Positions 23,604-27,950 of a stretch of 54,138 bases of DNA are shown here, in pieces. This DNA is from Nitrospira sp. (GTDB lineage Bacteria; Nitrospirota; Nitrospiria; Nitrospirales; Nitrospiraceae), in NCBI GenBank assembly GCA_023248215.1, contig JAHFEW010000022.1, forward strand, positions 1 through 54,138. The letters run 5' to 3'. Below the pieces are notes generated by a model. It was given only the letters and a program-made list of their open reading frames with translations. It was not told the DNA's origin and searched no databases. Within the stretch, counting starts at the first letter, position 1, and the number at the start of each line of letters is the position of its first letter. The position numbers and the translations under genes are program-made.

Positions 23604-23951
23604 CTAACGATCCGACGGGAAGGGGTTTGCGGAGATACAGGACTTCATGATCTCAACTTGGCACTGTGTGTTGGGCGCCAAGCGCCGTGCCACAGCCGCC
23701 ATGAGCTCTTCGGGCGTGACAACGCCGGTGACCACATCAACGAGCGCATGGTCCGGAACGCTGTCCAGATTCACGTGCGTGACGCCGGGAACCTGTGCCA
23801 ACTCCGCAGCGATGGTCTGGCGGAGAGAAGAACAATCTTGGCCTGACAAGGAGAGCGCCACGCGCTCGTGCGAGATGTCGGCAATAACTGGGCTCACTGG
23901 GCATCCGACGAACAGGAGCACACAGCACAGCATCATCCCACGATATCGCAT
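23604..23951 (-). CDS. Secreted HMA-like domain protein with incomplete metal motif
   Basis: A 115-residue protein with a signal peptide (MRYRGMMLCCVLLFVGCPVSPVIA). The next ~70 residues follow the heavy-metal-associated fold: VALSLSGQDCSSLRQTIAAEL, VPGVTHVNLDSVPDHALVDV and TPEELMAAVARRL. The metal loop reads GQDCSSL where HMA proteins have GMxCxxC, so one of the two cysteines is missing. It may bind copper with other residues or have a structural role. ATG 23951 is preferred (GGGAG six bases upstream); ATG 23957 directly abuts that site. It lies directly downstream of nirK, after a strong hairpin, so a copper-handling role for NirK is possible but inferred. Confidence 0.75.
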   Translation of the reverse strand: MRYRGMMLCCVLLFVGCPVSPVIADISHERVALSLSGQDCSSLRQTIAAELAQVPGVTHVNLDSVPDHALVDVVTGVVTPEELMAAVARRLAPNTQCQVEIMKSCISANPFPSDR

Positions 23952-24016
23952 CAGCATCTCCCAGAAACCACAATGCTTGGGTCAATCGAGCTGTCATCAT
24001 GACTCTTCCTGCAAGG

Positions 24017-24066: not shown

Positions 24067-25038
24067 TTACTTGGCCGGCAATTCCCAGGGCACCATCGGC
24101 ATCAATGGAGCCGTCTTCGCATCCGGTCCTGCCAGCAAGACCGCAATGGCGCCTCGCAGCGCACCCGTCAGTGAATGGGTGACCAACGGATAGGCTCCGG
24201 CGGACTCCACCACGACATCAAAGGTCGCCGCGCTGCCCGGACCGACCACGTAGGTCTGGACGCCCTTCAGGTTGTTGGCAGGATTGCCGCTCTCGTACAC
24301 ATTGTCCCAAATCTCACCGATGGGGTGAAACGAGGAAAACTCGTTAGGACCGGCATTGACGAAATAGATCCGGACGCGTTCGCCGGGCTTGGCATCGAGC
24401 TTCCCCCCGCCGGTCACGAACGGGTGGTATTTGAAAATCCCACCGTTGAACAGCATGCCGTCGTACTTGCGATCGAACATCGCCTGCACATCGTTCGGAT
24501 TCTTGAAAAACTCGGACTGCACCAGAACATATTCACGATCAGCCTTCGGCCAGACCTTGACATCCTTCGGATCGACGATGATCGCCCCGAACATGCCGCG
24601 CGCCACGTGCTGGATCATGGGAGGCGCGCCGCAGTGATAAAAGAACACTCCGGGCTTCTTGGCTACGAACGTGAAACTGATCGTTTCACCCGTATTGACC
24701 GCCCGATAGTTTTTTAAGAAATCGATCTCCGCGGCGTGGAAGTCCATCGCGTGCGGATTCTTGTTGGTGGTAGGGTTCGTCAAGGTGAAATTGATGGTAT
24801 CGCCTTCCGTCACCCGCACCACCGGACCGGGAAACTGCCCGTTAAACGTCCAAGCGGCATACTTTTCACCGCCGCCGTCGATGATGATGTCCGTCTCCAC
24901 CGCCGTCATCTGGATGTCGTGGGTCTTGGCCTGGACGGGCAATGCCAAACTGGCCATCACCCCCAGCGCCATCCCTAACAGCGACGCCGTCTTGCACCGA
25001 CCGCGTCCTTGATTGTGCTGCCCTGCTCGCTCTTGCAT
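24067..25038 (-). CDS. nirK: Copper-containing nitrite reductase
   Basis: A 323-residue secreted two-domain cupredoxin protein that reduces nitrite to NO in the periplasm. The signal peptide ends near VQA (residue 37). Type 1 copper ligands: His96 (NPHAMDFHAAEID), Cys136, His144 and Met149 (FYHCGAPPMIQHVARGM). Type 2 copper ligands: His101, His135 and His288 (YPLVTHSLTGALRG). The catalytic pair Asp99 and His238 (SSFHPIGEIWD) is also present, so all key residues are intact. The protein is shorter than classical NirK near 360 residues. AGGAGG lies six bases before the ATG. A Crp/Fnr gene and a perfect palindrome lie upstream; an HMA-like protein lies downstream. Its role in nitrite oxidisers is unsettled. 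Confidence 0.93.
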   Translation of the reverse strand: MQERAGQHNQGRGRCKTASLLGMALGVMASLALPVQAKTHDIQMTAVETDIIIDGGGEKYAAWTFNGQFPGPVVRVTEGDTINFTLTNPTTNKNPHAMDFHAAEIDFLKNYRAVNTGETISFTFVAKKPGVFFYHCGAPPMIQHVARGMFGAIIVDPKDVKVWPKADREYVLVQSEFFKNPNDVQAMFDRKYDGMLFNGGIFKYHPFVTGGGKLDAKPGERVRIYFVNAGPNEFSSFHPIGEIWDNVYESGNPANNLKGVQTYVVGPGSAATFDVVVESAGAYPLVTHSLTGALRGAIAVLLAGPDAKTAPLMPMVPWELPAK

Positions 25039-25128
25039 GTCTGCCTCCTATGATTGAATCCGCGCTTCCCAGCTATTCGTTTCCCTCTCACATCATTCGT
25101 AGCGCTCGAATGCTGCTGATCTGCCTGC

Positions 25129-25176
25129 ACCATACGGCAGACCGATATCAATAAAACATGACAATTGTCATGTTTT
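25129..25176 (-). promoter_or_regulatory. Candidate Crp/Fnr operator and promoter of nirK
   Basis: A perfect 24-bp palindrome spans 25153-25176 with the core ATGAC-AATT-GTCAT, i.e. two 5-base half-sites spaced by four bases, the geometry of Crp/Fnr-family boxes. On the minus strand a weak -10 (TATGGT, 25134-25129) lies 33 bases from the centre. That puts the site near -42 of the predicted start, the class II activator position, with an 85-base leader before nirK. The regulator gene next door is the obvious candidate to bind it. The palindrome has no loop, so it is not a typical terminator. Confidence 0.75.
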
Positions 25177-25205: not shown

Positions 25206-25934
25206 TTACGTGGAAGCCAGGTGTTTGAGCCTAGCGAGGTCGCGAATGACGAGGCGAGCGGCGGTTCCGGACACCAGACGATCCTTCTTGAAGCGCGCCA
25301 TGATCCGGATGGCGGTTTCGGTCGTCACCCCCACCATATTCGCCATATCCTGACGAGTGAGGCGAACGGAGAGCCGAATCCCGTTTGGCTCCTGCACGCC
25401 AGTACGCTCGGCCAAACTCGCCAGCAGAGAGGCCAATCGTTGATCCGCACGATCAAGGGCGAGGATCTTGGCTTTTTCCTGCGCTTCGTTGAGGCGGTTG
25501 CCCAGATAGCGGATGACTTCCATCGCGGCATCGGGGTTACCCCGCAACATCTTAAAGTAGGCCTCTTTCTTCATCCGTAGCACACTGACGTCGCCCATCG
25601 GTTGAGCCGTTCCCGGATGAGAAGCCCCATCGAATGCCGAGGCATCGCAACAAAATAGATCGCCCGGCATGAGCACTTTCAGCGTGCATTCCTTCCCGTC
25701 GAGAGAAGATTTGACACACTTGACCGACCCTTCTTTGACGATATGGAAGTATTCGGTGGGATCACCTTCGCGGAAAATATACTGACCCTTCCCGTAGTGG
25801 GTTTCCGTCATCTCGCCCAGGACCTGTTGGCGGTCCTGGGCGCTGAGGATCTTGAGGAGTGGAATCTGGTTCAATCCAAGAGGAAGCCCAGAGGTGGGCT
25901 GTTCAGCGGAGGATTTCTTTGGCCGCTTCGACAA
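25206..25934 (-). CDS. Crp/Fnr family transcription regulator
   Basis: About 242 residues. The N-terminal half is a cyclic-nucleotide-binding-type sensor barrel (ETHYGKGQYIFREGDPTEYFHIVKEGSVKCV, LKVLMPGDLFCCDAS), then a long dimer helix, then a Crp-type winged helix with recognition region LTRQDMANMVGVTTETAIRIMARF. The Glu and Arg of ETAIR match the DNA-contacting pair of Fnr. Two adjacent Cys (LFCCDA) sit in the barrel; there is no N-terminal Cys cluster as in Fnr, so the ligand is unknown. The start is uncertain. The frame is open to 26000, but TTG 25934 has GGAG nine bases upstream and leaves a 32-base overlap with the transketolase end. It is expected to control nirK through the palindrome at 25153-25176. 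Confidence 0.85.
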   Translation of the reverse strand: MSKRPKKSSAEQPTSGLPLGLNQIPLLKILSAQDRQQVLGEMTETHYGKGQYIFREGDPTEYFHIVKEGSVKCVKSSLDGKECTLKVLMPGDLFCCDASAFDGASHPGTAQPMGDVSVLRMKKEAYFKMLRGNPDAAMEVIRYLGNRLNEAQEKAKILALDRADQRLASLLASLAERTGVQEPNGIRLSVRLTRQDMANMVGVTTETAIRIMARFKKDRLVSGTAARLVIRDLARLKHLAST

Positions 25935-27777
25935 TCGTGCGTACTCCAATTCCGAAATGATCGACGAGTTCCTCCGGCTTCCCGCTACGCGGAATCTCAC
26001 GCACGGCCAACTTATGGACCCGCACGCCTTCTAACGCCAGCGCACTCAGGACAGTGTCGCCGATTCCACCATGGGCGTAATGATCCTCGACAGTCAAGAA
26101 GCGCCCACCGGTCGCCCGCGCACAGTCGAGGAGCGTCGCCCGATCCACTGGCACGATGCTGTACAGGTCCACGACGCGCGTCGCAATCCCGGCGGCCTTC
26201 AACTGGTCGTGCGCCTTCAAGGCTTCGAACAGAGTCACGCCTGCGGCGACGATCGTCAGCTTATCGACCGCACTCTGCCGGACGACCTTGGACCCGCCGA
26301 TGCGGAAGGTTTCGTCGGGACCATAAATAACCGGCGTCTTCGGACGGCCTGCCCGGAGATACACCATCCCCTTGTGGGCCGCGGCGACTTCGACCAATTT
26401 GTACATCGATAGGGCATCCGAGGGATAGAGCACCGTGACACCAGGCTGCGTCGACATCATGGCTAAATCTTCAAGCCCCATCTGTGAAGGGCCGTCTTCA
26501 CCGATGCTGACGCCGACATGGGTTCCCACTAGCTTGATGTTCGACTGGCTGATGGCCGCCATGCGAATGAAATCGTAGGCTCGGGTGAAGAAGGCGGCAA
26601 AGGTGGCGACAAAAGGAATTTTTCCGCAGGCGGCGATACCGGCCGCGGCGCCCAGCATATTCTGCTCGGCGATAAAGTTTTCAAGGAACCGGTCGGGGAA
26701 CCGTTTACCGAATTTGTCGCTATAGGTGGAGTTCTTCACATCGGCGTCGAGTGCGACCACGAGCGGGTTCGCCTCGCCGAGCGCTAGAAGCGCAACTCCG
26801 AAGGCTTCCCGAGCTGCGGCTGAGTCACCGAGCTTGTAGGGCGGGGGCGCCATCGTTCCCTTGGAGGTGGCGGGAACCTTACCCGCCGTAGGCAGTTTCA
26901 TCTGAGGCTGCGCCGACGTAGGCTTCAGTTGACGCGTCAATTCATCCAGGGCCTTCTGAGTCTCTTCCCCCTTCTTCAACGGTTTCCCATGCCATTCCGG
27001 ATGATTTTCCATAATGGAAATGCCGCGCCCCTTGAAAGTCTTCGCCAGCAGGACCGTCGGCCGGCCTTTGGTCCGTCCCGCCTCGTCAAACGCCGCCACG
27101 AGCGCACCGACATCATGGCCATCCACCACAATGGCATGCCAGCCGAATCCAGCCCAACGGACTCGATAGGCTTCCATATCGTGTTGCAGCATGGTGGGAT
27201 CGCTTTGTCCCAGTCGATTGACGTCTATGATCGCACAAAGGTTGTCCAAGCTGGCATGGCGAGCGACTTCAGCCGCCTCCCATACCGATCCTTCGGCGGA
27301 TTCGCCATCGCCCATCAACACGTAGGTGCGGTAGTCGGTCTTCTCGATAGACTTCGCATTGAAGGCGAGACCGACTCCGGCCGGCAATCCCTGGCCCAAC
27401 GATCCGGTCGCCATATCCACGAACGAGAGGCGGGGAGTCGGATGGCCTTCGAGATCGGAGGCAAGAGTGCGAAGTTTCAGCAGCTCCGACTTTGCAAACA
27501 GGCCGGCCTCCGCCCAGGCCGCATAGAGCAAGGGGGCCGCATGGCCTTTCGATAGGACAAATCGATCACTGTTGGGCAACTTGGGATTCTTCGGGTCGTA
27601 CCGCATCACCGAGAAAAATAATACGGCAACGATGTCCGCAGCTGAGCAACAACTGGAGGGGTGACCGCTCCCGGCCTCGCTCGTCGCCTTGACACTCTCG
27701 ATGCGAAGTTGTGTGGCTTTATTAGACAGGACGGTCAGGAGCTCAGGCGTGGCTGCAGTAGCGGTAGAGGATGTCAT
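25903..27777 (-). CDS. tkt: Transketolase
   Basis: A 624-residue thiamine-diphosphate enzyme that moves two-carbon units between sugar phosphates in the pentose phosphate pathway. The N-terminal TPP domain has SEAGSGHPSSCCSAADI, SKGHAAPLLYAAWAEAG and the MGDGESAEGSVWEA ... DVNR Mg/TPP motif (about residues 155-190). The pyrimidine domain (about 315-480) has the catalytic Glu in NFIAEQNMLGAAAG, then a C-terminal domain. Size and motifs fit the shorter TktA/TKTL2-like group rather than the 660-residue E. coli type. Start ATG 27777 is supported by AAAGGA eight bases upstream; the frame runs open to 27939. Its 3' end overlaps the Crp/Fnr gene. The divergent pyr operon lies upstream. Confidence 0.93.
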   Translation of the reverse strand: MTSSTATAATPELLTVLSNKATQLRIESVKATSEAGSGHPSSCCSAADIVAVLFFSVMRYDPKNPKLPNSDRFVLSKGHAAPLLYAAWAEAGLFAKSELLKLRTLASDLEGHPTPRLSFVDMATGSLGQGLPAGVGLAFNAKSIEKTDYRTYVLMGDGESAEGSVWEAAEVARHASLDNLCAIIDVNRLGQSDPTMLQHDMEAYRVRWAGFGWHAIVVDGHDVGALVAAFDEAGRTKGRPTVLLAKTFKGRGISIMENHPEWHGKPLKKGEETQKALDELTRQLKPTSAQPQMKLPTAGKVPATSKGTMAPPPYKLGDSAAAREAFGVALLALGEANPLVVALDADVKNSTYSDKFGKRFPDRFLENFIAEQNMLGAAAGIAACGKIPFVATFAAFFTRAYDFIRMAAISQSNIKLVGTHVGVSIGEDGPSQMGLEDLAMMSTQPGVTVLYPSDALSMYKLVEVAAAHKGMVYLRAGRPKTPVIYGPDETFRIGGSKVVRQSAVDKLTIVAAGVTLFEALKAHDQLKAAGIATRVVDLYSIVPVDRATLLDCARATGGRFLTVEDHYAHGGIGDTVLSALALEGVRVHKLAVREIPRSGKPEELVDHFGIGVRTIVEAAKEILR

Positions 27778-27921
27778 GCACGATCCTTTCACGGTCGGAA
27801 CCGATGATGTTGGATGACGAGAGGACAGACCGGCTCTCAATGGCACGAAGCTAACAAATGGCATGCAGGGAGTCAATGAAGAGCTTGCACCAGACTTACT
27901 CGCTGAGCCATCCCGCGATTC

Positions 27922-27950
27922 TTGACACGGTACAGGCAACTCGTTAAGAT
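27922..27950 (+). promoter_or_regulatory. Sigma70 promoter of the pyrimidine operon
   Basis: TTGACA at 27922-27927 and TAAGAT at 27945-27950 are separated by exactly 17 bases, one mismatch from consensus in the -10. Transcription should begin near 27957, giving a leader of about 135 bases ahead of pyrR at 28093. This region is also the 5' side of the divergent transketolase gene. Confidence 0.85.

What the first reader, a model, noticed from the sequence alone, without database searches (positions are those of the whole stretch)
25129..25176. Perfect 24-bp palindrome at the class II position of nirK
The palindrome has ATGAC-N4-GTCAT, the 5-4-5 geometry of Crp/Fnr boxes, and its centre is 33 bases from a -10-like TATGGT on the minus strand, matching activation at about -42. 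The Crp/Fnr gene lies right beside it. The half-site differs from Fnr (TTGAT) and Crp (TGTGA), so this may be a distinct NO- or nitrite-responsive specificity.
Basis: partly seen in the sequence, partly recalled or inferred. Interest (0 to 1): 0.65.

Follow-up and report, generated by a model that had tools for sequence, protein, structure and literature searches.

The report
Dedicated nirK switch in Nitrospira
A perfect DNA palindrome in front of a nitrite-reductase gene is very probably the docking site of the regulator encoded next to it, and this gene-regulator-site trio is kept across much of the Nitrospira family, which gives a direct handle on the unexplained job of this enzyme in nitrite-oxidising bacteria.

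Summary
The palindrome is real: AAAACATGACAATTGTCATGTTTT, window 25153-25176, the only perfect palindrome in the window with arms over 8 bases. In all 27 congeneric genomes where the region can be read, the gap between the Crp/Fnr gene and nirK carries AAAYATGAY-N4-RTCATRTTT. Across the family its centre lies 29-30 bases before a TANNNT -10 element (88 of 90), i.e. about -41.5/-42.5, the class II activator position. The site tracks the regulator: 80 of 83 genomes with the Crp/Fnr orthologue have it; genomes without it are at chance level, and 0 of 48 nirK upstream regions examined there carry it. In the genus the only recurrent targets are nirK and an unlinked second nirK. The half-site ATGAY differs from CRP, FNR, DNR, NnrR and HcpR boxes; in one related clade with Glu at recognition-helix position 180 the box is TTGAY instead (one evolutionary event). 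Best reading: a dedicated, nearly single-target Crp/Fnr regulator activating nirK from a class II site. Binding, activation and signal are untested; 'NO- or nitrite-responsive' remains a guess. Earlier work noted the Fnr-type gene upstream of nirK; no description of the site was found.

The parts
25153..25176 (.). 24-bp perfect palindrome, predicted operator of the adjacent Crp/Fnr regulator
25158..25171 (.). core ATGAC-N4-GTCAT (5-4-5 half-sites)
   Evidence: ATGA/TCAT nearly invariant in 94 oriented sites, fifth base Y/R, central four bases free
25129..25134 (-). -10-like TATGGT, predicted nirK promoter
   Evidence: TANNNT at 29-30 bases past the site centre in 88 of 90 sites
25206..25928 (-). 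Crp/Fnr-family regulator gene; start codon uncertain (in-frame TTG at 25874, 25934, 25949 and GTG at 26000); its upstream end runs into the transketolase gene
25290..25331 (-). recognition helix of the regulator (GVTTETAIRIMARF)
24067..25038 (-). nirK, copper nitrite reductase, predicted target
   Evidence: (TIGR02376, 194.9 bits, under the 296.3 cut-off)
25040..25049 (-). ribosome-binding site AGGAGGCAGA of nirK
   Evidence: sequence; aligned

Best explanation
The palindrome is the operator of the Crp/Fnr-family protein encoded immediately upstream. The dimer binds the two ATGAY half-sites with its centre at about -41.5/-42.5 of the nirK promoter, where the site takes the place of a -35 element, and activates nirK as a class II activator. 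The regulator is dedicated: in the genus its only recurrent targets are nirK and, where present, an unlinked second nirK copy. Shown by sequence comparison: the site, its conservation, the fixed spacing to a -10, co-occurrence with the regulator, the nirK-only target set. Inferred: physical binding, activation rather than repression, and the signal (perhaps redox, NO or nitrite, sensed through invariant Cys/His residues).
For: Site in 27 of 27 readable crp-nirK junctions of the genus with a diverged spacer around it. Centre 29 or 30 bases before TANNNT in 88 of 90 sites across the family. 80 of 83 genomes with the orthologue have the site at up to 2 mismatches against 17 of 92 without, near the reversed-pattern control rate; the three exceptions are two weaker sites (L078, L081) and one regulator broken by stop codons whose site is gone (L100). 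48 nirK upstream regions from orthologue-negative genomes: none with the motif at 3 mismatches. Unlinked nirK2 copies carry the site with the same -10 spacing in 10 of 11 readable cases in the genus, the eleventh at 3 mismatches. The other three HTH_Crp_2 proteins of this genome have different recognition helices. Related regulators with a TEET helix have TTGAY boxes instead.
Against: No binding, expression or start-site data. Site and regulator gene are physically linked at the main locus, so their co-occurrence is partly plain co-inheritance, and the counts are not phylogenetically independent. Two nirK2 copies in other genera that have the regulator lack the site (L144, L145). Two UBA-like marine relatives with the regulator show no clear box (L155, L159).
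Confidence: 0.8

Rival explanations
1. The same regulator binds the site but represses nirK by blocking RNA polymerase at the -35 region.
For: A site in the -35 region could also block polymerase; no expression data were available. nirK copies of N. moscoviensis are described as constitutively transcribed (PMC6606698).
Against: The promoters lack a recognisable -35 other than the site, and the 29-30 base spacing is held strictly, as class II activation needs. Repression would tolerate more positions.
Confidence: 0.1
2. The palindrome is an intrinsic terminator or other RNA hairpin at the end of the crp transcript, conserved as RNA; or it doubles as one.
For: It follows the crp stop by 22-68 bases, can fold as RNA (z -3.3; -11.2 kcal/mol with flanks) and ends in a short T run; upstream genes of nirK2 also point the same way.
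Against: Stem has few G-C pairs and is not called by the terminator scan. Among non-complementary symmetric positions (-3 and -8) in 69 distinct sites, 22 are unpairable C-A and 27 pairable wobbles, so RNA pairing is not protected. Hairpin energy ranges from -10.1 to -0.6 kcal/mol. Does not explain the fixed spacing to a -10 or loss of the site where the regulator is absent.
Confidence: 0.04
3. Another DNA-binding protein, not the neighbour, uses the site.
For: No binding data; Nitrospira genomes hold several Crp/Fnr homologues.
Against: Site absent where this orthologue is absent, even in front of nirK (0 of 48); site lost where the regulator is broken (L100); the other Crp/Fnr proteins of this genome have different recognition helices (CSRETVS twice, ARREVVS).
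Confidence: 0.05

Closest known systems
FNR (TTGAT-N4-ATCAA) and DNR (CTTGAT-N4-ATCAAG)
   Same: Crp/Fnr fold, 5-4-5 palindrome, E181 and R185 equivalents kept, class II position; DNR also controls denitrification genes.
   Different: First base of the half-site is A, not T; the N-terminal FNR cysteines are absent; about 25% identity to solved FNR structures; nearly one target.
HcpR1 of delta-proteobacteria (wyTTGAC-N4-GTCAArw, or wTGTGA)
   Same: Local regulator of one main target, 5-4-5 box ending in AC; flanking A/T.
   Different: A instead of T or G at the discriminating base; different target; PMC1274295 motifs do not include ATGAY.
NnrR (ctTTGcg-N4-cgCAAag), predicted for a Nitrospira MAG in PMC8510549
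   Same: Crp/Fnr regulator proposed to answer NO and to act on nitrite reductase genes.
   Different: The box here does not fit the NnrR matrix; whether that paper's NnrR is this protein was not established.
Fnr gene upstream of nirK in Nitrospira (PMC5596200)
   Same: Gene adjacency noted in UW-LDO-01, N. moscoviensis, N. defluvii and OLB3, with a suggestion of nirK control.
   Different: No binding site, promoter geometry, target set or specificity given in the passages read.

Membership tests
Crp/Fnr family | N-terminal cNMP-binding-type beta-barrel plus C-terminal Crp-type HTH | tested here: met
   PF00027 and PF13545 above cut-off; predicted fold matches GlxR, MtbCRP, FNR, TM 0.8 or better
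Crp/Fnr family | Palindromic site with two half-sites of about 5 bases separated by 4 or 6 | tested here: met
   ATGAY-N4-RTCAT conserved
Crp/Fnr family | Signal-dependent DNA binding | not testable with these tools
   needs purified protein
FNR (oxygen-sensing) | N-terminal cysteine cluster ligating 4Fe-4S | tested here: not met
   no Cys before residue 71; Cys only at 71, 81, 93, 94
FNR / DNR | Box TTGAT-N4-ATCAA | tested here: not met
   half-site is ATGAY in the family; a TTGAY box is seen only with TEET-helix relatives
CRP (cAMP-dependent) | R180 in the recognition helix with TGTGA half-site | tested here: not met
   position 180 is T, V or P in the family
CRP (cAMP-dependent) | cAMP pocket (GEL ... 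RTS) | tested here: not met
   replaced by FCCDA ... HPGT in the alignment to GlxR/MtbCRP
NnrR | Box TTGCG-N4-CGCAA | tested here: not met
   site compared with the consensus in PMC1274295
Class II Crp/Fnr-activated promoter | Site centre near -41.5 | tested here: met
   deduced from -10 spacing, 88 of 90
Class II Crp/Fnr-activated promoter | Mapped start site and regulator-dependent transcription | not testable with these tools
   needs 5' end mapping and a mutant or reporter

The most novel reading that the evidence does not exclude
A previously undescribed Crp/Fnr subfamily serves essentially one gene, nirK, in nitrite-oxidising and comammox-type Nitrospira. Its ATGAY half-site is set apart from an FNR-type TTGAY box by recognition-helix changes (position 180 among them) inside one regulator lineage, and its sensor uses invariant Cys71, Cys93, Cys94, His62 and His104.
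Probability: 0.5. Interest if true: 0.65.

Novelty: new variant of a known kind. Interest (0 to 1): 0.52.

Why it matters
NirK is present in all analysed Nitrospira, yet its function there is called unknown (PMC8115632, PMC6606698). A nearly single-target regulator kept from N. defluvii to N. moscoviensis suggests that nirK expression itself is under selection; finding what the regulator senses would show when these cells want to make NO. The half-site also adds a class with A as first base to the Crp/Fnr DNA code, with a related TTGAY clade for comparison.

Tried and rejected
Terminator or RNA hairpin: rejected as the main role on mismatches, energies and spacing. Large nitrogen regulon: not supported; the bare 14-mer has 9 places in this genome against 2 for the reversed control, but only one fits the extended motif at up to 2 mismatches, and the 3-mismatch extras are mostly not palindromic and look like chance. 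Repeated independent switches between TTGAY and ATGAY: rejected, the TEET proteins form one clade. The literal motif ATGACNNNNGTCAT was not found in the paper library.

Full report
Observation. The 24-base palindrome at 25153-25176 is exact, with ATGAC-N4-GTCAT at 25158-25171. It is the only perfect palindrome in the window with arms of nine or more bases; the expected number with arms of twelve or more is 0.005. On the minus strand it lies between the stop of a Crp/Fnr gene (25206) and nirK (start 25038), with TATGGT at 25134-25129.

Neighbours. The regulator has cNMP_binding and HTH_Crp_2 domains and scores far below the cut-offs of every named NCBIfam Crp/Fnr model. nirK resembles copper nitrite reductases (TIGR02376 at 194.9 bits, below the 296.3 cut-off); its best solved match is 4kns/4knt/4knu at 347 bits. 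The alignment keeps the His and Cys residues of the copper sites (read from the alignment with knowledge of the family). Named relatives of the regulator are in 'Candidatus Nitrospira defluvii', N. moscoviensis, N. lenta and other Nitrospira bins, so the window is most likely from a Nitrospira.

Conservation. In 29 genomes of the genus, a nirK orthologue is found in 28 and the crp-nirK junction can be read in 27. All 27 carry AAAYATGAY-N4-RTCATRTTT (one with one mismatch) at the same place, followed by a conserved -10 element, with diverged sequence around them. In the genus 40 places match at up to two mismatches, and 37 of them lie before a nirK gene: the syntenic copy (27) or a second copy about 60% identical elsewhere in the genome (10). 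The reversed control gives 5. With the 18-base core, only two further exact matches appear in 29 genomes, each in one genome (G006, G012), and the control gives one. In the window's own genome only one place fits with up to two mismatches.

Promoter geometry. Over the family, the first base of a TANNNT hexamer is 29 bases (59 sites) or 30 bases (29 sites) past the site centre, 88 of 90 (the -10 was searched between 24 and 36, and a few loci were fetched twice). That puts the centre at about -41.5 or -42.5, the class II position. This is deduced from the -10, not from mapped transcripts.

Link to the regulator. Of 175 family genomes, 83 hold the orthologue at E <= 1e-60 and 80 of these have a site at up to two mismatches. 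Two of the exceptions have weaker sites (L078, L081); the third has a regulator broken by stop codons and no site (L100). Of 92 genomes without the orthologue, 17 have a match somewhere, close to the rate of the reversed control. The Fisher p-value (1e-28) ignores phylogeny and linkage and should be read as descriptive. Stronger is that 48 nirK upstream regions from orthologue-negative genomes have no site even at three mismatches, while nirK2 copies unlinked to crp have it in 10 of 11 readable cases in the genus, and at three mismatches in the eleventh. Two nirK2 copies in other genera lack it (L144, L145).

Other targets. In a few relatives the site after crp precedes other genes: cytochrome c plus a cupredoxin/beta-propeller protein (L075, L088), or carbonic anhydrase, cytochrome c and a more distant nirK (L071). 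L087 has a site before a ferredoxin-thioredoxin-reductase-like gene, seen once.

DNA specificity. The family proteins have T, V or P at CRP position 180, E at 181 and R at 185. PMC1274295 ties position 180 to the discriminating base of the half-site and 181 to the A. E181 with A is kept here, but the discriminating base is A rather than G or T. In the next family of the order, beside more distant nirK genes, proteins with GLTVETATR, GLTKETTSR or similar helices also have ATGAY boxes, one group (GLTLETTSR) a hybrid or unclear box, and proteins with TEET have TTGAY-N4-RTCAA. The TEET proteins form one clade (support 100/99), so this is one event and not replicated evidence. Position 180 cannot be the only determinant: FNR has V there (alignment) and reads TTGAT.

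Sensor. H62, C71, C93, C94 and H104 are invariant in 50 aligned orthologues. The N-terminal FNR cysteines and the cAMP pocket are absent. The model is an ordinary Crp/Fnr fold (mean pLDDT 79.6). What it binds is unknown.

RNA alternative. Hairpin stability varies from -10.1 to -0.6 kcal/mol among sites, non-complementary symmetric positions are nearly as often unpairable as pairable (22 and 27), and the terminator scan does not call it. A second, weak role as terminator is not excluded.

Literature. PMC5596200 (2017) noted an Fnr gene upstream of nirK in four Nitrospira. PMC8510549 (2021) predicted an NnrR in a Nitrospira MAG, using a binding matrix from other organisms. No description of this site was found, in a library that lacks most subscription papers. 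The function of NirK in Nitrospira is stated to be undetermined (PMC8115632; PMC6606698).

Verdict. A well-supported but experimentally untested prediction: a dedicated Crp/Fnr regulator with an ATGAY half-site acting on nirK from a class II site.

Noticed in passing
window 25092-25114 (minus strand, nirK leader): A short stem-loop in the 5' leader of nirK (AGCAT-TC...GA-ATGCT type) is kept across the genus; 5 of 7 pairs have compensatory changes, but the covariation term is small.
   Followed up: partly
window 25903-27939 and 25206-25928: The crp reading frame runs into the 3' end of the transketolase gene, on the same strand, so crp may be transcribed and translated together with it; the same neighbour is seen in L088.
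   Followed up: no
L088 346-2125; L075 4144-6101: In two relatives the regulator and its site precede a cytochrome c gene and a cupredoxin plus YVTN beta-propeller protein instead of nirK, perhaps a functional replacement.
   Followed up: partly
L075 1023-2128: A second site near an extra crp copy has a -10 at the right spacing on the other strand, about 500 bases before a cyanase-like gene.
   Followed up: no
L016 (G019:C998): nirK has an internal TAA and the operator has a G-to-T change in one half-site; decay of both, or an error in a fragmented assembly.
   Followed up: no
L166 and L167, about 190-220 bases after crp: Before the nirK of another clade lies a long different palindrome (CTAATTAGATACATG-GC-CATGTATCTAATTAG type), besides a TTGAY box nearer to nirK.
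   Followed up: no
L087 2522-3080: One genome has the site with correct -10 spacing before a ferredoxin-thioredoxin-reductase-like gene.
   Followed up: no
window 23604-23957: A small exported protein just downstream of nirK weakly matches a CopZ metallochaperone model (24.4 bits against a cut-off of 85).
   Followed up: no
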